This document shows, one piece after another, positions 5,903 through 45,870 of a DNA stretch of 64,000 nucleotides. The position numbers and the translations under genes were made by a program. Under the pieces are notes generated by a model that was not told the origin of the DNA, searched no databases, and saw nothing but the letters and a program-made list of their open reading frames with translations. Source of the DNA: Dictyobacter aurantiacus (GTDB lineage: Bacteria > Chloroflexota > Ktedonobacteria > Ktedonobacterales > Ktedonobacteraceae); the NCBI RefSeq assembly GCF_003967515.1, contig NZ_BIFQ01000001.1, forward strand, positions 5,890,001 through 5,954,000. The letters are read 5' to 3'. Each line of letters opens with the position of its first letter. Position 1 is the stretch's first letter.

Positions 5903-6802
5903 TCAGAGCAATCGTGGTTGTGCCACAAGATCCTCTGTTTTCCGGATTCGCGGTGGGATGCTGAAGCCATCAAGGCTCCAGCCGATGGTGATGTTTCTGG
6001 TTTGCGGATGGTGGCGAAGATGGTCGTAGAGCTGGCGGGCATGGCGCGTCTCGGACCAGTCGGGGACAGCCTGGGCATAGGGGCTGTGGGAGGTACGGTA
6101 GCCGGCCGTGCCGTCACCATCGACCATGGTGTCAACGATGATGCGCCGGGCGCTGCTCTCGATCAGCCACTGTCCAAACTGCTCGGCAGAAGTGTAGGGC
6201 AGGCAGGGGCTGACCGCGATCTGGGTCGGGACGTCCTGCTGGCTGGCGGCGCGCACCGCCTGCCAGCGCTTCTCCAGCGGGGGTCCACCTCGCAGGTTCT
6301 TGAGATAGGATTGGTCGTTGGTCTCGATGGTCATCGACAGCCAGGCGTAGGGAATCTGCTTGATCAGCGCCAGGTCGCGTTCCACCAGCGGCGAGCGCGT
6401 CTGGATGAGCAGCAGATCGAGATCGGGATAGCGCGCGAAGACTTCCAGGCACTGGCGCGTAAGCTGATATTTGTTTTCGAGGGGTTGATAGGGATCAGTC
6501 GAGCTGCTCATAAAGATACGCAGCTTCTGGCGCGTGGCGGGCCGCATCTTCGCCAGCGTCTCATCGAGCAGCTGTGGCGCGTTCGCCTTGATGTGAACCG
6601 CGCTACCCCAGGTCGCGCTTCCCCCTACGAAGGACCAGTTGGGGAGGAACTGCGCGTAGCAGTACATGCCGCAGGTGGTCGATCCGAAGCCGCAGCCCAC
6701 ATAGCACGACAGGGTATGGGTATATGGATAGGTCCCGCTCGCCAGAAAGCCGCCGCGCTGGGGACCAAGGATGCTCTTTGCCTCTCTAAGATGAATCTCC
6801 AT
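5903..6802 (-). CDS. Radical SAM protein, spore photoproduct lyase-like
   Basis: A 299-residue radical SAM TIM-barrel protein. The cluster-binding region reads CYVGCGFGSTTCGMYCYAQ (about residues 33-51). The Cys before the aromatic-Ala pair is preceded by C-x3-C spacing, and a further Cys lies seven residues earlier, so spacing differs from the textbook CxxxCxxC. Later motifs include MSSSTDPYQPLE and LIQTRSPLVERD, which resemble the SPL-like branch. The substrate is unknown; DNA-lesion or small-molecule chemistry are both possible. It starts at ATG 6802 and appears monocistronic. Confidence 0.75.
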   Translation of the reverse strand: MEIHLREAKSILGPQRGGFLASGTYPYTHTLSCYVGCGFGSTTCGMYCYAQFLPNWSFVGGSATWGSAVHIKANAPQLLDETLAKMRPATRQKLRIFMSSSTDPYQPLENKYQLTRQCLEVFARYPDLDLLLIQTRSPLVERDLALIKQIPYAWLSMTIETNDQSYLKNLRGGPPLEKRWQAVRAASQQDVPTQIAVSPCLPYTSAEQFGQWLIESSARRIIVDTMVDGDGTAGYRTSHSPYAQAVPDWSETRHARQLYDHLRHHPQTRNITIGWSLDGFSIPPRIRKTEDLVAQPRLL

Positions 6803-39860: not shown

Positions 39861-40522
39861 CGTAGGTTCCTCTTCTTCTACTAACAACGAACGGCCAGAT
39901 CAATCAGGCAGGTGTCCGACCTGTCGCATAGAAGGCACCGCCAGTGCCCATTCACCGCGCGCTACAAAAACAGCGGACGGTGCCGTGGGGCGCATACTGT
40001 TCTTTAACGACAAAAATAGCATATCACACGTGCCGGACCGGTCGAGTCTGCAGAGCCACCCGCAGACATAGCTCTGCCCTGATTCTTATAATCGGCACCT
40101 CGTCACCGTCCGGGCATTATCCGATCCTGAATTCCCCAGGCAACAGGCAGTCAGACAGCCTGCCATGCGGATGCAGTGGCTATGAAGAGGAAAATGTGAC
40201 AGAGAATAATGAGGCTCTAAATCGGGGTGAAGTGGATGAAAGGTACATAAAAAATGTAGATTGGATGGACATTTCATCCATAATTACTAAAAAGTAATCG
40301 TTTACTGTATTACCCTTGAAAGGTAGCTCGACAATGCTGTATCTACCCGCCGAATCGCGTGCCCTGTCCGGTGCATGTCGAATATTTTGAAACTGCTCAA
40401 AATACGTGGCGTAAACACTTGATTTATTTAAATTTATCAGTTATCATTGCTATGAACGATAAGTACTTGACAAATAGCATTGAATTTAAGAACTGTTAAT
40501 AAGATAAATGGAGGTGTGCAAA
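39861..40522. other. intergenic region upstream of the Ro60 locus
   Basis: No gene is convincing. The segment 40400-40520 is AT-rich and contains TTGACA at 40467-40472, with a GTTAAT-like -10 at 40495-40500 (a long 22-base spacer), just before a ribosome-binding site. This is the likely promoter of the small protein at 40523 and perhaps of the RNA array. Confidence 0.45.
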
Positions 40523-40741
40523 ATGACGCAGATGGCAACAACTCCCATTCACATCCGCATTGGCGGGCGCAGTGAAGAGATTCCACTGGCTCAGCTGGGT
40601 GTGATGAATGCCGCGGACGACCTCCAGCTAAAAAATGCCGTGGCGCGCCACCTTGATCTCCCGGCGCAGTCTCTAAACAACCACGTGATCGTGCGTACGA
40701 CGCAGGCCATCATCATCCGTCCCGAGGCGTTGTACGGCTAG
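40523..40741 (+). CDS. Small protein ending in Gly, candidate ubiquitin-like (beta-grasp)
   Basis: A 72-residue protein. GGAGGTG lies 6 bases before the ATG. The pattern is two short strands (PIHIRIGG and EEIPLAQLG), one helix (DDLQLKNAVARHLDL) and a final strand (HVIVRTTQAIIIRPEALYG) ending in Tyr-Gly, compatible with a small beta-grasp fold and an exposed C-terminal Gly. An E1/ThiF-like protein is encoded 4.5 kb downstream in the same direction, the usual companion of ubiquitin-like modifiers. There is no direct sequence match to a named family, so the call rests on size, order of elements, Gly end and context. Confidence 0.5.
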   Translation: MTQMATTPIHIRIGGRSEEIPLAQLGVMNAADDLQLKNAVARHLDLPAQSLNNHVIVRTTQAIIIRPEALYG

Positions 40742-40778
40742 GGCCGGACAGGAAGAAAAAGAGTGAGTGAGGCGTGTC

Positions 40779-40857
40779 CGGGGCGTACTCCAACTGGAAG
40801 GGCTTACATACGACTTTGGATCGTTTTTTTGTGCCCTTGCGACATGTACGTCCCGGG
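40779..40857 (+). ncRNA. Y RNA, minimal form (copy 1)
   Basis: The 5' strand CCGGGGCGTAC (40779-40789) pairs with GTACGTCCCGG (40847-40857), one G-U. Next comes the asymmetric loop with TCCAAC on the 5' side and GACAT on the 3' side, then helix 2, AAGGGC/GCCCTT. The apical part is only about 29 bases, starting TTACATAC and ending in a run of T; no tRNA-like module is present. The loop signature matches the Ro60-binding site of Y RNAs (UCCGA opposite UUGAC). Confidence 0.65.
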
Positions 40858-40901
40858 CTTGCTGCCCGCCCCTGATGCAAGCATTTGCGAGAGACGAGGC
40901 A

Positions 40902-40929
40902 GGAAGCGCCCGCAAGGGGCGCACCTACG
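40902..40929. repeat. AGGAAGCGCCCGCAAGGGG repeat, left copy
   Basis: This 28-base element recurs at 41774-41801 with three changes near its 3' end. The two copies bracket Y RNA copies 2-5. Both are preceded by ATTTGC a few bases upstream. Confidence 0.65.
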
Positions 40930-40964
40930 GATAAATCCTGCTCTTGGGCAAAAGCATATATACG

Positions 40965-41106
40965 GCCCTGTACCCTGATAGATTGAACCTACAAACTGGT
41001 AATTCCCGCCCTTGCGGGAAGGGTTGGTTCGATCCCAACAACCTCCACCACCAATCGGGGGTTTTGAGCCCTTCGGGGCTGTGTTCAATAAACTTGTACA
41101 GGGCCG
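40965..41106 (+). ncRNA. Y RNA with tRNA-like module (copy 2)
   Basis: Helix 1 GGCCCTGTAC/GTACAGGGCC; loop CCTGATAG opposite AAACTT; helix 2 ATTGAAC/GTTCAAT. The apical module is permuted: a 7-bp hairpin in the anticodon-arm position (TTCCCGC CCTT GCGGGAA), a T-arm GTTGG-TTCGATC-CCAAC, then AACCTCC pairing with GGGGGTT as an acceptor-like stem closed by a loop containing CCACCA, and a D-arm position occupied by AGCCC-TTCG-GGGCT. The UUCG-capped D position shows it is a tRNA mimic rather than a usable tRNA. Confidence 0.8.
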
Positions 41107-41154
41107 GCCAGATCTTTTCTTTACAAGCTTTTCTTTTGCCGATGATATCTTAGC

Positions 41155-41299
41155 CGAGGTGCGCTCCGACGGTGTGAGCTTACAAACTGTGGATTTTTAA
41201 TCCAGCTGTCGCAGGTTCGAGTCCTGCCGGGATCGTTTGAACCCGTAGCTCAGTGGGAGAGCGCTTGTTTTCATGCTCGTGCGACTCGCGCACCTCGGC
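41155..41299 (+). ncRNA. Y RNA with tRNA-Lys-like module (copy 3)
   Basis: Helix 1 CCGAGGTGCGC/GCGCACCTCGG (11 bp); loop TCCGACG opposite GACTC; helix 2 GTGTGAGC/GCTCGTGC with G-U pairs; then TTACAAAC. The module reads, in permuted order, an anticodon-like arm TGGA-TTTTTAA-TCCA (Lys UUU type), T-arm GCAGG-TTCGAGT-CCTGC, acceptor-like CGGGATC/GAACCCG closed by the tetraloop GTTT, then TA and a classical D-arm GCTC-AGTGGGA-GAGC. The tRNA parts are nearly canonical, but the acceptor stem is closed and no free 3' end exists. Confidence 0.85.
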
Positions 41300-41330
41300 C
41301 TGGATATCGATCTATGAGATGGTGTTGTTG

Positions 41331-41396
41331 GCGAAACGTGCGCGGCCGGGTACGGGCCGCTTCGCAGCCAAGCCGGGGCAAGTCCGGCACCTACGG
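41331..41396. repeat. long dispersed repeat ending GGGGCAAGTCCGGCACCTACG
   Basis: About 65 bases (from GGCGAAACGTGCGCGG to CACCTACG) recur with about 85 percent identity by eye at 56801-56860. The 3' part is the GGGGCAAGCCCGGC hairpin seen elsewhere. It ends exactly where Y RNA copy 4 begins. Confidence 0.6.
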
Positions 41397-41546
41397 TCCT
41401 GTGCTCCAATCTGAAGAGCGTACATACGGTTACCTTTCTCTTTTACCTCTGGATTGGATGCGGGTCGAGTCCTGAACTCTGAACTGGTTGTAGTCATCCG
41501 CTGGATGATGCCATCAGAGCCCGCTCTTGTTAACTCGCATAGGACA
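41397..41546 (+). ncRNA. Y RNA with degenerate module (copy 4)
   Basis: Helix 1 GTCCTGTGC/GCATAGGAC with one G-U; loop TCCAATC opposite AACTC; helix 2 AAGAGC/GCTCTT; then GTACATAC. The module has a shortened T-arm-like GCGGGTCGAGTCCTG and a 7-bp hairpin GTCATCC-GCT-GGATGAT in the D-arm position, with CTCTGA/TCAGAG around it. The tRNA resemblance is weaker than in copies 3 and 5. The Ro60-binding end is fully conserved, so it is probably still a Y RNA. Confidence 0.65.
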
Positions 41547-41584
41547 GGCTTTTTATGTAGATACCGCGTTGACACCGACTGGTA

Positions 41585-41723
41585 CCGGGCGCACTCCGAC
41601 TGATAGAGCTTTCAAACATTTGAGCAATCTTCGTGGGTTCGAATCCCACCAGCTGTAAAGCTGTAGCCAAGTGGCCAAAGGCGGATGTCTTTCTTATAGC
41701 TCTATTGACTCGTGCGCCCGGTC
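41585..41723 (+). ncRNA. Y RNA with YrlA-like module (copy 5)
   Basis: Helix 1 ACCGGGCGCAC/GTGCGCCCGGT (11 bp, perfect); loop TCCGACTG opposite TGACTC, the closest match to the Y RNA consensus; helix 2 ATAGAGC/GCTCTAT. Module: ACAT/ATGT junction helix, T-arm GTGGG-TTCGAAT-CCCAC, acceptor-like CAGCT/AGCTG closed by a GTAA (GNRA) tetraloop, then TA and a D-arm-like GCC...GGC. A T-arm and D-arm joined by a tetraloop-closed acceptor stem is the known arrangement of bacterial YrlA RNAs. It ends 98 bases before the Ro60 gene. Confidence 0.88.
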
Positions 41724-41773
41724 CTGGTTGTATCGATAAAAGAATATTGTTTGCAGACATTTGCATATAGGTA

Positions 41774-41801
41774 GGAAGCGCCCGCAAGGGGTGTGCCTGC
41801 T
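41774..41801. repeat. AGGAAGCGCCCGCAAGGGG repeat, right copy
   Basis: Right-hand partner of the repeat at 40902-40929. It lies between the last Y RNA and the Ro60 start codon and could influence Ro60 translation. Confidence 0.65.
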
Positions 41802-41821
41802 GTGTGCCTGATGGTGATGTG

Positions 41822-43294
41822 ATGACACAAAATCCCCCTGTTGAGCTGGATGTGCGTGTTGCGATTCTTAACTCGTTTTTGACCACACCACATCGTAAAA
41901 TTGAGGAGCTGGCGCCGCTGCATGCGAGCGCGCTGGCCAATGATCCGCTTTTCTACAGTCGTCTGGCGCTGTGGTACTTCGCTAAAGGCGAGGTGCGCGA
42001 TCATAAGCTGCTGTTCGTGGCGCATCTGGCGACCAGCGAGTATCCGGAGTTCCGCGAGGCGGCCTGGGTGCTGCTGCAGAAACTGGCGCCGTACGAGGTA
42101 TCGCGCGCGCTCGACCACACCAAGAAGGTGATCGGCAAGACGCCACGTTCATTCAAGGGGGCGGTCGCGCATTACCTGCAGACGCGCGAGAATAATCCAC
42201 GGCAGTTTGACGGTGCCGCCATGCGCGCGCGCAACGATCTCAAGCATCTCTACGCCAGTCTGCGCATCAAGCCGGGTCCGCGCGCGCAGGCGATTCTGTT
42301 CGACGAGCAGCCGCCGACCGACAGCCCGCTGTACTCGCTCAAGCAACTGGCCAAGGCCGACAGTGCCGAGGAGCAGGCGCGCATCATTATTGAGCACAAG
42401 ATCCCGTACACCACGGCGGTCGGCGCGCTCAAGAACGTGACGCCGGTGGTGCTGGTGGCCTTGATCGAAGCGATGTCGCCGCAGGAGGTCATCAACAACA
42501 TGGCCGCTCTCAAGAAGCGCGGCGCACTGGACAATCCCGAGGTCAAGGCGCTGGTCGATCAGAAGCTGGAGGCGGCTAAGACCGACAAGCGCGTCTCGAC
42601 CCTGAAGGCGAAGAAGGCCATGACGGCCACAATGCTGGATGCCGAGACCGAGAAGGTGCTGACCGAGGTCATGGACCAGCGCGTCGCCAGCAAGGTCGAG
42701 ATCAAGCGGCCCACGGCCCTGTTCGTAGACAAGAGCAGCTCGATGTCACAGTCGATCGAGGTTTCGAAGCAGCTGGCCGGTTTGATCAGCGCCGTTACGA
42801 CGGCTGACTTTTATGTCTACGCCTTTGACTCGGCGGCCTTTGAGATTACCGTCAAGGTGCCTGAGGGCAAGCGTCCGATGCTGAGTGACTGGGAGAAGTC
42901 CTTCCAGTTCATCAAGGCCAACGGGAGCACCTCGATCGGGGTAGCTCTGGCGCAGATGACCAGGAAGCGGCAGTACGTAGAGCAGATTCTGATCGTAACC
43001 GACGAGGGCGAAAACTCCTCGCCGCTGCTGGCTGATGCCTGGATCGCCTACAGAGAGGCCATGAAGGCGGCGCCCTCAGTAGTGGTGGTGCAGGTTGGCG
43101 GTTATTACGACCGCTTCGCCCAGGGTCTGATGGATCGTGGTGTTGAGCTGACACGCTATCGCTTCGATGGCGACTACTACTCGCTGCCGAACGTGCTGGA
43201 ACTGCTGGCTCAGCCCTCACGGGCCGAACTGGTCGAGGTCATTATGGGCTACGAGCTGCCGCGTCGCCCTGATCGCGTTCTCCAGGGCGTGTAG
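41822..43294 (+). CDS. rsr: Ro60/Rsr orthologue (TROVE + vWA)
   Basis: A 490-residue RNA-binding ring protein. Residues 10-290 are the all-helical TROVE (HEAT-like) domain (LALWYFAKGEVRDHKLLFV; IPYTTAVGALKNVTPVVLVA). The C-terminal third is a vWA domain with MIDAS motif DKSSSMS near residue 302, a Thr in NGSTSIG and Asp in IVTDEGEN, so metal binding is intact. Ro60 binds Y RNAs on its outer surface and misfolded RNA ends in its pore, and in bacteria works with exonucleases such as PNPase. Five Y RNA genes lie directly upstream. I chose the ATG at 41822; a GTG at 41804 is possible. It is probably co-transcribed with the downstream vWA and E1-like genes. Confidence 0.93.
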   Translation: MTQNPPVELDVRVAILNSFLTTPHRKIEELAPLHASALANDPLFYSRLALWYFAKGEVRDHKLLFVAHLATSEYPEFREAAWVLLQKLAPYEVSRALDHTKKVIGKTPRSFKGAVAHYLQTRENNPRQFDGAAMRARNDLKHLYASLRIKPGPRAQAILFDEQPPTDSPLYSLKQLAKADSAEEQARIIIEHKIPYTTAVGALKNVTPVVLVALIEAMSPQEVINNMAALKKRGALDNPEVKALVDQKLEAAKTDKRVSTLKAKKAMTATMLDAETEKVLTEVMDQRVASKVEIKRPTALFVDKSSSMSQSIEVSKQLAGLISAVTTADFYVYAFDSAAFEITVKVPEGKRPMLSDWEKSFQFIKANGSTSIGVALAQMTRKRQYVEQILIVTDEGENSSPLLADAWIAYREAMKAAPSVVVVQVGGYYDRFAQGLMDRGVELTRYRFDGDYYSLPNVLELLAQPSRAELVEVIMGYELPRRPDRVLQGV

Positions 43295-43391: not shown

Positions 43392-44168
43392 ATGTATGAG
43401 GATATTAACCAGGTAGACCTCGCTTTTGTGATGGATACCACGGGGAGTATGGGACCATTAATCAAGGCCGCTCGTGAGCAGATGATTGAGATGTTGTGCC
43501 GGGTCGCGGCGGCAGCAGATATTCAGCTCCAGCTGGGCATCGTCGAATATCGAGACCACGAGCCGCAGGCGAAGCTGCTGACCAGGGTCTATCCGTTGAC
43601 GGATGATCTGGAACAGGCGCAGCAGGTGCTGATGTCGCTGCGTGCTGACGAGGGTGGCGACGCTCCAGAGGCGGTGCTGGATGGTATTGTAGCCGCCTGC
43701 CACGAGCTATGCTGGCGCAGGCATGCCCTGCGTCTGCTGGTCCTGGTGGGTGACGCACCACCGCACGGAGTCGGTGTTGGCGGTGATTCCTTTGCCGGTG
43801 GATGTCCCTGTGGAGAGACTATTGCCAGTGTGACGCGCCAGGCGGAAGAGGCGTCTGTTACCATTCATGCGCTGGGCCTTACAAGCAGCGTGGATGCATC
43901 ATTTAGCGAGATCAGCGCCCTGGCTGGTGGACAGTTTTTCGCCGCCGGGCAGGCGGATAAGGCTATCGTGCATATAGAGGAACTGCTCCAAAAGCAGTTT
44001 GCTGAACTGGAACTGGATCGCCAGATCCTGGCGCTGTATCGAGCGCAGCCCGAACTGGATAGCGAAACGCTGGCCCAACGCCTGGATGTACCCAGGCATG
44101 TCGCAGCGAACGCGTTGGTGCGCCTGCTTTCACGAGACCTGATCGAGGTCCCGGCCCGCCAGGCTTGA
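43392..44168 (+). CDS. Stand-alone vWA-domain protein with C-terminal helical domain
   Basis: A 258-residue protein. The vWA fold occupies residues 5-190: strand LAFVMDTTGSMGP (MIDAS DxTxS variant), GDAPEAVLDG, and VLVGDAPPHGVG at the last metal position. A cysteine pair CPCGE lies in a loop. The final 60 residues (LDSETLAQRLDVPRHVAANAL) look like a winged helix. The ATG at 43392 follows AGGGTGG. It sits between the Ro60 gene and an E1-like gene. vWA proteins of this kind assemble with Mg2+-dependent partners; here it may bridge the Ro60 particle and the downstream proteins (inference). Confidence 0.8.
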   Translation: MYEDINQVDLAFVMDTTGSMGPLIKAAREQMIEMLCRVAAAADIQLQLGIVEYRDHEPQAKLLTRVYPLTDDLEQAQQVLMSLRADEGGDAPEAVLDGIVAACHELCWRRHALRLLVLVGDAPPHGVGVGGDSFAGGCPCGETIASVTRQAEEASVTIHALGLTSSVDASFSEISALAGGQFFAAGQADKAIVHIEELLQKQFAELELDRQILALYRAQPELDSETLAQRLDVPRHVAANALVRLLSRDLIEVPARQA

Positions 44169-44194: not shown

Positions 44195-45211
44195 ATGCCG
44201 GATAAGCGCAAGTCGCCAGTCACGAGAGGCAAGGTGGATGCCCGCGAGCTGATCGCCCGTCTGGGTCAGCAGGGTCGCGATCTACAGGAGTGTGAGCTGA
44301 TCGCGCCACTGTTGGTTGGCGGGCGGATCCGCACGCGGCTGAACGGGCTGGTGTACGAGTTCCGGGTGCGCCAGCGCTTTGTGGGCTGGGGACGTTTTCG
44401 GCCCACCGGTGAGTCCGAGGCGCATCTGATCGAGGAGGCTCTACCGTGGGAGCGCGGGTCTTATCTTGAGCTGTTTCCCGCCTTGAGGATGCTGCTGCTC
44501 TGGCCCGATAGCGGTGGACGCTTTCCCGGCACCTGGTGGGCGCTTCCCTACAATGAGGATGACGCGCGCCGGCGCTTTGGTCTATCGATGGAGCCGGTGC
44601 CGGTCTTTCTGTGCGATCCCATGGAGGGCGCGGAACGCTTCGAGCGCGTCACCGTGCGCGTGGATGGCGGCATGCGTTGGTTCGAGGGGCCAGACCTGCG
44701 GGCCGATCCCCGCCACGCCGAGTGGCTGCGCGACGCGGCCGCTGTGGAGTCAGACAAGCCACTGGAAAAGCTTTTGTCGGGACTGGCGTCCTCTGAGCGG
44801 CTGGCTCTGCTACTGTGGCGCATCCATCAGCTGGAACTGACGAGAGGCGTGGCGGACGGAGGGATGCGGCCGCCACAGCGACGGCGGGAACAGCGCGACT
44901 GGCTGGCCGGGCAGACGCGGCAGCGCGCGTTGGAGCAGCAGTTGCGCCACGCCTTGAGCAAGGCCGACGCCACACTGCACAGCTATAGCGAGGTCGCCGC
45001 CAGCGATGGCTCACCGCACCACATGGTCGTCGAGTGGAGCGAACACGGACAGACGCGCCGCTACCGATCACTGGTCGATCCAGGACTCAACGTCGTCTCC
45101 AGCGGCATCTGCCTCAGCGGACAGGATCGCGACTTCGATCTGACCAGCCTGGTGAACGTGATGGCGGCCTCCCCTTCCTGGGCCGGCTACGATGACGAGG
45201 AGGATATATAA
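44195..45211 (+). CDS. Conserved-context protein of unknown function in Ro60 locus
   Basis: A 338-residue soluble protein without a domain I recognise. Residues 30-120 look beta-rich (LNGLVYEFRVRQRFVGWGRF, then LELFPALRMLLLWPD). Residues 180-270 are helical and Arg-rich, and the C-terminus is again beta (DGSPHHMVVEWSEHG). Cys residues occur in QECELIA, VFLCDP and GICLSG. GGAAAGG precedes the ATG, and the next gene starts two bases after the stop, so it is translated together with the E1-like protein. An E2-like role is conceivable from position, but no E2 signature is visible. Confidence 0.7.
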   Translation: MPDKRKSPVTRGKVDARELIARLGQQGRDLQECELIAPLLVGGRIRTRLNGLVYEFRVRQRFVGWGRFRPTGESEAHLIEEALPWERGSYLELFPALRMLLLWPDSGGRFPGTWWALPYNEDDARRRFGLSMEPVPVFLCDPMEGAERFERVTVRVDGGMRWFEGPDLRADPRHAEWLRDAAAVESDKPLEKLLSGLASSERLALLLWRIHQLELTRGVADGGMRPPQRRREQRDWLAGQTRQRALEQQLRHALSKADATLHSYSEVAASDGSPHHMVVEWSEHGQTRRYRSLVDPGLNVVSSGICLSGQDRDFDLTSLVNVMAASPSWAGYDDEEDI

Positions 45212-45213
45212 GC

Positions 45214-45870
45214 ATGACACAGCAGCAGCCCTTGAATTCCCAGAGCCCCTTCTTTCATGAGGAGCGGCACGCGAGTCTGCAGCCGTTCGCCGGGCGTTTG
45301 ATTACCATCTGTGGCGCCGGAACGCTGGGGGCCAACGTGGCCGAGACGCTGGCGCGCATGGGTTTCACGCAACTGCGCGTGATCGACAGGGATCGCATCG
45401 AGATGCGCAACCTGTCGGGCCAGCCGTATAGCCGGGCCGAGGTGGGCGCGCCTAAAGCGCGCGCCCTGTCCAATCTGCTCTATCGGGCCGTGCAGGCCCG
45501 CGTTGATCCAAAGGTGGTTGAGTTGACGGCCGAGAATGTGGTAGGTTTGTTGCAGGGGAGCGCGCTGGTGGTGGATGCCTTTGATAATGTAGAAGGACGC
45601 GAGGCGGTCAGCCGGGCCGCGCGCGACGCGGATCTGCCCTGTCTGCATATAGGGTTCAGCGGCGACGGAGTGTATGGCAGCGGTATCTGGGAACCGCGCT
45701 ACCAGGTTCCGCGCGAGGTGCCTGGCGACCCCTGCGACTATCCGCTGACGCGTCCGCTGGCCTTGATGCTGAGCGCCCTGGCAGCGCGGGCTATCACTGA
45801 CTTTTTCCGCCTGGAGCAGCGGCACGACTTCGAATTGACGTGGAACGATATAAAGGTGCATTATGGGTGA
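45214..45870 (+). CDS. ThiF/MoeB/E1-like adenylating protein
   Basis: A 218-residue protein of the E1 superfamily. The nucleotide site reads ITICGAGTLGANVAETLARMG, followed by RVIDRDRIEMRNLSGQPYS at the adenylation site, GAPKARALSNLL, and DAFDNVEGREAVSRAA with the Mg-binding Asp. Full-length ThiF is somewhat longer, and the zinc-binding CxxC pair is not seen; a Cys in GDPCDYPLTRPLALM lies about where E1 proteins have their catalytic or zinc Cys. E1-like enzymes adenylate the terminal Gly of ubiquitin-like proteins, and a Gly-ending small protein starts this locus. GGAGG at the previous gene's end serves as ribosome-binding site. Confidence 0.85.
   Translation: MTQQQPLNSQSPFFHEERHASLQPFAGRLITICGAGTLGANVAETLARMGFTQLRVIDRDRIEMRNLSGQPYSRAEVGAPKARALSNLLYRAVQARVDPKVVELTAENVVGLLQGSALVVDAFDNVEGREAVSRAARDADLPCLHIGFSGDGVYGSGIWEPRYQVPREVPGDPCDYPLTRPLALMLSALAARAITDFFRLEQRHDFELTWNDIKVHYG

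What the first reader, a model, noticed from the sequence alone, without database searches (positions are those of the whole stretch)
40779..41723. Array of five tandem Y RNAs directly upstream of a Ro60 gene
Five consecutive units share one architecture on the plus strand: a 9-11 bp end helix of different sequence each time, an asymmetric loop TCCRAY (CCTGAT in copy 2) opposite RACWY, a 4-8 bp second helix, then the conserved YTWCAWAC. The end helices differ in sequence but always pair, which is strong covariation. The loop matches the known Ro60-binding site of Y RNAs (UCCGA opposite UUGAC). Five copies with different apical modules, next to the Ro60 gene, is an unusually rich Y RNA locus.
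Basis: partly seen in the sequence, partly recalled or inferred. Interest (0 to 1): 0.92.

Follow-up and report, generated by a model that had tools for sequence, protein, structure and literature searches.

The report
Ro60 RNA array mimicking translation RNAs
Next to a distant bacterial relative of the human Ro60 protein sits a row of five small RNA genes that share one handle but carry different tips, several resembling parts of tRNA, inside a gene set that looks like a ubiquitin-type tagging system; similar sets recur in giant phages and in cyanobacteria, and in the cyanobacteria some tips copy ribosomal RNA.

Summary
In detail: five RNA units on the + strand at 40776-41722 of a Dictyobacter-like (Ktedonobacteraceae) genome, between a 72-aa gene and a 490-aa gene. 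That protein misses Pfam TROVE, but its AlphaFold model's first seven PDB matches are Ro60 chains and its profile aligns with TROVE proteins: a divergent Ro60. (1) Tips are mimics. In 40 related loci, 109 units: 66 carry a tRNA T-arm (shuffled 0.5), 41 both T- and D-arm (shuffled 0), in permuted or normal tRNA order. Window unit 5 repeats 22 nt of host tRNA-Ser(GGA). In cyanobacteria six units join the 23S sarcin-ricin loop with the GTPase-associated centre, and five copy H69-71. (2) The array sits in a recurrent cassette: small protein ending in Gly (ubiquitin-like topology, not proven), Ro60, a protein with invariant Cys, ThiF/E1 and, in most viral versions, a JAB peptidase. Best explanation: a Ro60-held bait library for proteins acting on translation RNAs, coupled to ubiquitin-like tagging. 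Expression, binding and conjugation are untested; unit 4's tip is unexplained.

The parts
40523..40741 (+). 72-aa ubiquitin-like candidate ending RPEALYG
   Evidence: 15 of 15 aligned homologues end in Gly; AlphaFold model beta-beta-alpha-beta-beta, pLDDT 80; Foldseek best hits PB1/UBL folds but not significant, E 0.24; no meaningful Pfam hit. Against: its profile's best PDB sequence match is ribosomal protein L23, E 0.0029
40776..40858 (+). RNA unit 1 (83 nt): 13-bp end helix, TCCAACTGG loop, second helix, TTACATAC; tip is a four-pair anticodon-arm-like hairpin ACGA-CTTTGGA-TCGT
   Evidence: 15 of 17 nt match host tRNA-Gln(UUG), score 24 against shuffled maximum 21, a modest match; the D. kobayashii unit keeps UUG with a changed stem but does not match host tRNA by alignment
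40963..41106 (+). RNA unit 2 (144 nt): tip with T-arm and CTCCACCA, like a tRNA or tmRNA 3' end
   Evidence: score 31 to host tRNA-Lys(UUU), shuffled maximum 27; weak Rfam permuted-tmRNA match, E 0.067; no likeness to host tmRNA beyond shuffles
41153..41299 (+). RNA unit 3 (147 nt): permuted tRNA-like tip: four-pair anticodon-like arm (UUU), T-arm, short closed acceptor-like stem, D-arm
   Evidence: Rfam YrlA 41.4 bits, E 1.5e-7, below gathering 69; D-arm part equals host tRNA-Val(CAC) in 24 aligned nt with one gap
41396..41545 (+). RNA unit 4 (150 nt): same core; tip conserved in D. kobayashii but not tRNA-like
   Evidence: z -3.46; no tRNA likeness beyond shuffles
41584..41722 (+). RNA unit 5 (139 nt): permuted tRNA-like tip: T-arm then D-arm
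   Evidence: 22 of 22 nt identical to the variable/T-arm part of host tRNA-Ser(GGA); YrlA 23.3 bits, E 0.028
41822..43294 (+). divergent Ro60 (helical ring plus vWA with DxSxS), 490 aa
   Evidence: AlphaFold pLDDT 80, pTM 0.49; Foldseek ranks 1-7 all Ro60 chains, E 1.8e-11 to 1.9e-8; hhalign with a TROVE alignment, probability 98.9
43395..44168 (+). vWA plus winged-helix-like protein; matched at only two Ktedonobacterial relatives (L018, L020) and one cyanobacterium (L191)
   Evidence: Pfam VWA_4 1.1e-12
44195..45211 (+). 338-aa cassette protein with invariant GICL cysteine; candidate transferase (E2-like role inferred only)
   Evidence: alignment A2, Cys306 invariant in 9 of 9; no meaningful Pfam, NCBIfam or PDB match
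45214..45870 (+). ThiF/E1-like adenylyltransferase, 218 aa
   Evidence: Pfam ThiF 1.2e-23; PADLOC E1-E2 7.8e-16

Best explanation
The five RNAs are Y-RNA-like partners of the adjacent divergent Ro60. Their common stem and loop would dock on the Ro60 ring, and their tips present copies of pieces of the translation machinery: anticodon-like arms, T- and D-arms and, in cyanobacterial relatives, the sarcin-ricin loop with the GTPase-associated centre, or H69-71. I propose that the tips are baits for proteins that attack or bind tRNA or rRNA (anticodon nucleases, rRNA-attacking or modifying enzymes), and that the Ubl-E1-Cys-protein-(JAB) part of the cassette tags what is caught. Shown here: the protein's fold, the repeated core, the mimicry of many tips, the recurrent cassette. 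Inferred: expression, docking on Ro60, capture of proteins, Ubl conjugation and its dependence on the RNAs. That a Y RNA's tRNA-like part may act as competitor of an anticodon nuclease has been suggested before for Salmonella YrlA (passage of PMC7790460).
For: Ro60 fold. 109 units in 31 of 40 loci, 0 in one shuffle of each locus. T-arm 66 of 109 (control 0.54), T+D 41 of 109 (control 0.0); permuted order 22, normal order 19. Of 69 five-pair, seven-base anticodon-like arms (control 1.6) 39 are T-arms by their loop; the other 30 show 18 different anticodon triplets, one of them for a stop codon (my subtraction). Six cyanobacterial units hold the sarcin-ricin loop (12 of 12 nt in five, 14 of 14 in one) plus the GTPase-associated centre (39-47 identical over 50-61 nt), and five hold H69-71; the first two lie about 1600 nt apart in 23S, so one RNA joins both parts of the factor-binding site. 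Cassette Ubl, Ro60, Cys protein, ThiF in the window, in 10 of 12 further Ktedonobacterial stretches, on two cyanobacterial plasmids, in a 595-kb phage, in 7 of 8 viral contigs and in 6 of 16 further cyanobacterial stretches. JAMM-motif protein in six distinct cassettes, five viral and L027. Of 34 small proteins read to their stop, 31 end at the conserved Gly; three viral ones run on, by 4, 2 and 1 residues (and the window).
Against: No expression, binding or conjugation data. The Ubl fold match is not significant, its profile's best PDB sequence match is ribosomal protein L23 (E 0.0029), and the Cys protein has no known fold. Many tips are not recognisable mimics: 43 of 109 lack a T-arm, among them window U1 and U4. 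rRNA copies were found only in cyanobacteria. JAMM proteins are missing from the 16 further cyanobacterial stretches and most Ktedonobacterial ones; four JAB-bearing cassettes have a Ubl without tail, so JAB and tail are only loosely linked. YrlA's tRNA-like domain is described as binding PNPase (passage of PMC8394870), which would explain tRNA likeness without baiting. Units persist beside interrupted Ro60 genes (L017, L036, L198).
Confidence: 0.37

Rival explanations
1. RYPER-like RNA decay: the tRNA-like tips tether PNPase or another nuclease to the Ro60 ring, and different tips adapt the machine to different RNAs.
For: Described for Deinococcus and for YrlA (passages read in PMC8394870; PMC7790460; PMC8058203). 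Two window tips match the YrlA tRNA-like module below cut-off.
Against: Does not by itself explain why tips differ within one array, two tRNA topologies, SRL+GAC or H69-71 tips, or the linked Ubl-like cassette.
Confidence: 0.25
2. Damage sensor: the tips are sacrificial copies of tRNA and rRNA; cleavage by an RNase toxin or defence nuclease frees Ro60 or activates the cassette, which then signals or repairs.
For: Anticodon-like arms with 18 triplets and the SRL, known sites of RNase attack (recalled). Presence in phages fits conflict with tRNA-cleaving defences. The Salmonella rsr operon is induced by tRNA fragments, and jumbo-phage TROVE proteins are discussed as RNA-repair platforms (passages).
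Against: No RNA ligase or kinase among the nine window proteins scanned; wider neighbourhoods were not scanned for them. YrlA is reported not to be a substrate of the anticodon nuclease in Salmonella (passage of PMC7790460).
Confidence: 0.18
3. RNA quality control or maturation: the array supplies Ro60 gates of different shape, and likeness to tRNA only reflects maturation or modification enzymes (RNase P, TruB, Dus).
For: YrlA is modified by DusA and TruB (passage of PMC8394870). T- and D-arms are the commonest features.
Against: SRL+GAC and H69-71 copies are not expected from such processing.
Confidence: 0.12
4. Decayed tRNA genes or mobile fragments with no function.
For: Pieces nearly identical to host tRNAs; two cassettes lie on plasmids; units also stand beside interrupted Ro60 genes.
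Against: The core recurs across phyla with pairing kept although helix sequences change; the SRL+GAC tip is alike in six cyanobacterial loci.
Confidence: 0.03

Closest known systems
Bacterial Y RNA YrlA (Rfam RF02553) with Rsr/Ro60 and PNPase (RYPER)
   Same: End stem thought to dock on a Ro60-type ring (passage of PMC8394870); tip with permuted T-arm, closed acceptor and D-arm; unit 3 scores 41.4 bits to the YrlA model.
   Different: Below the family's gathering score of 69; shared core with NTWCAWAC; arrays of up to six units found per stretch with different tips; normal-order tRNA tips, anticodon-like arms and rRNA tips also occur; a Ubl-like gene set beside it instead of the rtcBA genes of Salmonella.
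Vertebrate Y RNAs (Ro60-bound)
   Same: End stem with an asymmetric loop, UCCGA opposite GACU-like (recalled).
   Different: No Rfam match at cut-off; tips resemble translation RNAs.
Ro60/TROVE proteins: human Ro60 9nen, Rsr 2nvo, Thermus phage phiLo Ro60 9l5y
   Same: Whole-length fold match, profile match to PF05731-positive proteins, vWA DxSxS motif. Phage Ro60/TROVE proteins are already known (passage of PMC7824862; PDB 9l5y).
   Different: Not recognised by PF05731; 13-16% identity to solved Ro60s; ten PF05731 stretches of the phylum show no such RNA unit and no match to the small protein, Cys protein or ThiF.
Prokaryotic ubiquitin-like operons, type 6d of Iyer et al. 2006 (PMC1779556, section 14 read)
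   Same: Small standalone protein with conserved C-terminal Gly, E1-like protein, JAB peptidase, separate protein with conserved Cys.
   Different: JAMM protein missing from most bacterial cassettes here; Cys protein unrelated to E2 by any search run; Ro60 and RNA array added; 'TROVE' has 0 occurrences in that paper.

Membership tests
Ro60/TROVE-vWA protein | Ro60 fold over the whole length (helical ring plus vWA) | tested here: met
   Foldseek ranks 1-7 all Ro60 chains, TM-score on the query 0.48-0.58; model pLDDT 80, pTM 0.49
Ro60/TROVE-vWA protein | Match to Pfam TROVE PF05731 | tested here: not met
   No PF05731 match in the protein nor in the genome
Ro60/TROVE-vWA protein | Sequence homology with PF05731-positive proteins | tested here: met
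   hhalign A1 against five Chloroflexota TROVE proteins, probability 98.9 over 400 columns; one comparison, few sequences
Y RNA | End-pairing stem with conserved internal loop near the end | tested here: met
   likeness to the vertebrate loop is recalled
Y RNA | Bound by Ro60 in the cell | not testable with these tools
   needs pull-down
Y RNA | A small stable RNA is made | not testable with these tools
   no RNA-seq at hand
YrlA (RF02553) | Reaches the Rfam gathering score | tested here: not met
   best 41.4 bits against 69; no family at gathering in the window
YrlA (RF02553) | Permuted tRNA-like module (T-arm before D-arm) | tested here: met
   window U3 and U5, not U1, U2, U4; 22 of 109 units permuted, 19 of 109 in normal order
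Ubiquitin-like conjugation cassette | Beta-grasp protein ending in Gly | tested here: inconclusive
   Gly end in 31 of 34 read (and the window) and topology; fold match not significant; sequence profile points weakly to L23
Ubiquitin-like conjugation cassette | E1-like enzyme | tested here: met
   ThiF 1.2e-23
Ubiquitin-like conjugation cassette | E2 fold with catalytic Cys | tested here: inconclusive
   Cys invariant in 9 of 9 but no fold assigned
Ubiquitin-like conjugation cassette | JAB/JAMM peptidase | tested here: inconclusive
   none in the window cassette; JAMM motif in cassettes L027, L037, L153, L154, L155, L157; of three given to Pfam, two pass the Prok-JAB cut-off and one (L154, 21.9 against 25 bits) does not
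Ubiquitin-like conjugation cassette | Protein conjugates are formed | not testable with these tools
   needs biochemistry

The most novel reading that the evidence does not exclude
An RNA-programmed ubiquitin-like ligase: Ro60 holds a library of RNA copies of the weak points of tRNA and ribosome, each tip catches the proteins that act on that point, and the co-encoded Ubl machinery tags the captive. Target choice would be written in RNA tips, so the array could be extended unit by unit; giant phages, cyanobacteria with their plasmids, and Ktedonobacteria would share it as weapon or shield in conflicts over translation.
Probability: 0.22. Interest if true: 0.97.

Novelty: new variant of a known kind. 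Interest (0 to 1): 0.9.

Why it matters
What bacterial Ro60 and its Y RNAs do is largely open, and the tRNA likeness of YrlA has been an isolated fact. Arrays whose tips copy many tRNAs in two topologies and, in cyanobacteria, the factor-binding centre of the ribosome turn it into a pattern with a testable meaning: the anticodon arms and rRNA sites copied predict which proteins should bind. The recurrent link with a ubiquitin-like-looking gene set would connect RNA mimicry with protein tagging.

Tried and rejected
Pfam TROVE could not establish the Ro60 gene; fold and profile searches did. ARAGORN finds no tRNA in the window, as expected for permuted or partial tRNAs. No terminator-like site was found in 40300-41900 and promoter-like sites were at chance, so the transcripts are unknown. 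A first comparison with host 23S/16S used stretches lying on the opposite strand and missed the rRNA mimics; corrected, where 2 of 63 tips reach z 4 (both cyanobacterial). Window tips do not resemble host tmRNA beyond shuffles; among the 63 tips one, L020:9992, did (z 7.7), but its acceptor-like part is also that of a host tRNA-Ala, so tmRNA mimicry stays open. Shared 12-nt words with rRNA beyond chance were found only in the SRL units. Structure search of the small protein gave no significant hit. Counts: one search used 50 units (L026 dropped as near-identical to L025). One search used 40 stretches; left out were L026, L028 (gene fragment), L029-L033 (same genomes as L017-L022), L158 and L159 (near-identical to L155, L157); L039 and L161 are two ends of one plasmid and some cyanobacterial stretches are close relatives, so units are not all independent. 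Nine of the 40 have no unit by the strict descriptor: L027, L155 and L156 have units by a relaxed one, L034 scores 31 against a threshold of 32, L154 shows them by eye on the other strand (the relaxed scan gave one doubtful hit), L157 none, L199-L201 none (Ro60 gene cut by the contig end or incomplete). The relaxed scan gave one hit in 228,756 shuffled bases. A broken Ro60 gene does not imply loss of units: L017, L036 and L198 keep theirs. Odds: after rechecking, I lowered the best explanation from 0.40 to 0.37 and the novel case from 0.25 to 0.22, because the L23 match and the sub-cut-off JAB score weaken the Ubl part.
Full report
Observation. Read directly, the window has five units on the + strand between 40776 and 41722, each with: end helix, 5' loop of type YCYNAY, second helix in front of NTWCAWAC, a variable tip, the second helix's 3' strand, RACWY, and the end helix's 3' strand. 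A first scan for this architecture found four, a looser one exactly these five in both strands of 64 kb; neither found any in ten shuffled windows. RNAfold energies are 3.4-4.9 standard deviations below shuffles. The minimum-energy folds contain the end helix in all five but the proposed second helix only in U1, U4 and U5. Because the scans demand pairing and motif, the checks outside the window carry the weight.

Surroundings. The units lie between a 72-aa gene (40523-40741) and a 490-aa gene (41822-43294), followed by a vWA/winged-helix gene, a 338-aa gene and a ThiF gene. The genome is held as G000. The nearest named relative seen is Dictyobacter kobayashii, which has the same five units in the same order.

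The Ro60 gene. Pfam TROVE finds nothing. An alignment of seven homologues gave an AlphaFold model with mean pLDDT 80 and pTM 0.49. Foldseek's first seven PDB matches are all Ro60 chains, among them human Ro60, Deinococcus Rsr and the Ro60 of Thermus phage phiLo. Sequence profiles support this weakly against PDB chains (phiLo protein E 6.4e-4, Rsr 0.89) and well against five PF05731-positive proteins of the phylum (hhalign probability 98.9 over 400 columns). The DxSxS metal site of the vWA is present. It is a divergent Ro60.

Distribution. 13 of 47 genomes of the class match, the window's own included and one of them a fragment; in the phylum sample 13 of 400, all of this order; 18 of 292 in the phylum of Hydrocoleum (Cyanobacteria, by my knowledge), some genes incomplete. 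A genome-contig scan gave eight loci, including Hydrocoleum and two MAGs labelled Proteobacteria and Deltaproteobacteria; GenBank phages gave one 595-kb uncultured phage, plasmids gave Kovacikia and Dolichospermum, IMG/VR gave eight contigs, two pairs of them near-identical. IMG/VR labels are predictions.

RNA units in relatives. With one strict descriptor, 40 stretches (641,696 bases) hold 109 units in 31 stretches, and one shuffle of each holds none: Ktedonobacteria 37 units in 10 of 11, cyanobacteria 56 in 16 of 20, two other bacteria 5 in 2 of 2, viral 11 in 3 of 7. In L154, L155 and L156 the units lie upstream of the small protein, with a variant motif. In the first 50 units most motif letters are fixed by the descriptor and say nothing; end- and second-helix pairs change type at most positions while 98.7% and 96.2% of cells (eight inner positions) pair within a unit, against 65.0% and 57.9% across units (selection by pairing inflates the first figures). 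Grafts between loci pass the descriptor in 299 of 2312 cases, native units in 49 of 50. Ten of the 13 PF05731-type genomes were fetched (115,309 bases): no unit at a lower threshold.

What the tips are. 66 of 109 tips have a T-arm (control 0.54) and 41 both T- and D-arm (control 0.0). In 22 the T-arm comes first, as in a tRNA permuted so that the Y stem sits at the anticodon side; in 19 the order is D then T, as in a tRNA whose acceptor stem is replaced by the Y stem. Of 69 five-pair, seven-base anticodon-like arms (control 1.6) 39 are T-arms by their loop; the remaining 30 carry 18 triplets (my subtraction); window U1 and U3 have four-pair arms and are not among them. In the window, unit 5 shares 22 of 22 nt with host tRNA-Ser(GGA), unit 3 its D-arm with tRNA-Val(CAC) plus a UUU anticodon-like loop, unit 2 has a T-arm and CTCCACCA, and unit 1's small hairpin has the loop of tRNA-Gln(UUG), a modest match. 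Unit 4's tip is not recognised. Rfam's YrlA model matches unit 3 at 41.4 bits and unit 5 at 23.3, below its gathering score of 69. 43 of 109 tips have no T-arm, and a good part of those remain unidentified.

rRNA copies. Compared with the window host's 23S, six cyanobacterial tips of 159-162 nt hold the sarcin-ricin loop (12 of 12 nt in five, 14 of 14 in one) and a copy of the GTPase-associated centre (39 to 47 identical over 50-61 nt), scores 45-58 against shuffle maxima of 27-33; five tips of 137-139 nt hold H69-71 (23 to 27 identical over 26-31 nt), scores 32-44 against 26-30, and one on the Dolichospermum plasmid 25 of 27. They are flanked by the same core. The first two elements lie about 1600 nt apart in 23S. 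In one search, 2 of 63 tips reached z 4 against host rRNA, both cyanobacterial, so no window or other Ktedonobacterial tip.

The cassette. Homologues of small protein, Ro60, Cys protein and ThiF are together in the window and in 10 of 12 further Ktedonobacterial stretches; L020 is cut by the contig end and L028 holds only a Ro60 fragment. They are also together on both cyanobacterial plasmids, in the 595-kb phage and in 7 of 8 viral contigs, the eighth ending just after Ro60. Of 16 further cyanobacterial stretches, six show all four genes; five only small protein and Ro60 (one of them also a vWA match); L187 small protein, Ro60 and a ThiF match; L195 and L199 Ro60 alone; L200 Ro60 and Cys protein; L201 these and ThiF. 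The genomes of L034, L035 and L036 encode the Cys protein too. Of 34 small proteins read to their stop, 31 end at the conserved Gly and three viral ones run on by 4, 2 and 1 residues (and the window). A JAMM-motif protein is in six distinct cassettes, L027 and five viral, and in none of the 16 further cyanobacterial stretches; L018 has one about 5 kb outside. Of three given to Pfam two pass the Prok-JAB cut-off, one does not. The set resembles operon type 6d of Iyer et al. 2006, whose section 14 I read. Against a ubiquitin-like reading: the structure match is not significant and the best PDB sequence match of the profile is ribosomal protein L23, E 0.0029.

Explanation. Best supported: a Ro60-held set of RNA baits for proteins acting on translation RNAs, linked to ubiquitin-like tagging. 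Anatomy and mimicry are shown; expression, docking, capture and tagging are inferred. The decoy idea itself has been voiced for YrlA (PMC7790460 passage). The main rival is RYPER-type decay, in which the tRNA-like part tethers PNPase (PMC8394870 passage). rRNA-type tips and the variety inside an array speak for baits or sensors.

Novelty. Paper searches, judged from their listings and the passages read, showed no description of Ro60 RNA arrays with different tRNA tips, rRNA-copying Y RNAs, or a Ro60 cassette with ubiquitin-like genes. Two sources that I tried to open are not held (the 2014 paper by the DOI I recalled, and Sim et al. 2020), and other key reviews (Sim and Wolin 2018; Burroughs and Aravind 2016) were not read, so prior mention cannot be excluded. 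Bacterial Y RNAs that mimic tRNA and phage TROVE proteins are known; hence 'new variant of a known kind'.

Noticed in passing
L104:5808-5939 and 6083-6190; L100:904-1024; L108:2616-2764: Near PF05731-type TROVE genes of other Chloroflexota, Rfam tRNA matches carry a long insert; in the two stretches read (L104, L100) it looks like a hairpin stem in the anticodon position, i.e. the reverse nesting, tRNA outside and Y-like stem inside.
   Followed up: partly
L101 and L102: 20 and 18 Rfam tRNA matches lie clustered within a few kb of PF05731-type TROVE genes.
   Followed up: no
L029 (and L017), Ro60 gene: The Ro60 gene of Dictyobacter kobayashii changes frame near residue 395 in the assembly although its five RNA units are kept.
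   Followed up: no
L020:10804-14490: Two Ro60 paralogues in tandem with the vWA gene between them.
   Followed up: no
L038:7427-8227: A protein with a poly(A) polymerase head domain (PF01743, 2.1e-18), CCA-adding-enzyme-like, sits between Ro60 and the Cys protein in the Kovacikia cassette.
   Followed up: no
window 41396-41545: The tip of unit 4 is conserved in D. kobayashii but resembles neither tRNA nor rRNA beyond shuffles; what it copies is unknown.
   Followed up: partly
L036:7001-8557: The deltaproteobacterial Ro60 gene has one in-frame stop in the MAG, and the Cys-protein match beside it covers only the first part.
   Followed up: no
window 40523-40741 and alignment A3: The small protein family's profile has its best PDB sequence match in ribosomal protein L23 (E 0.0029); whether this is more than chance was not examined.
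   Followed up: no
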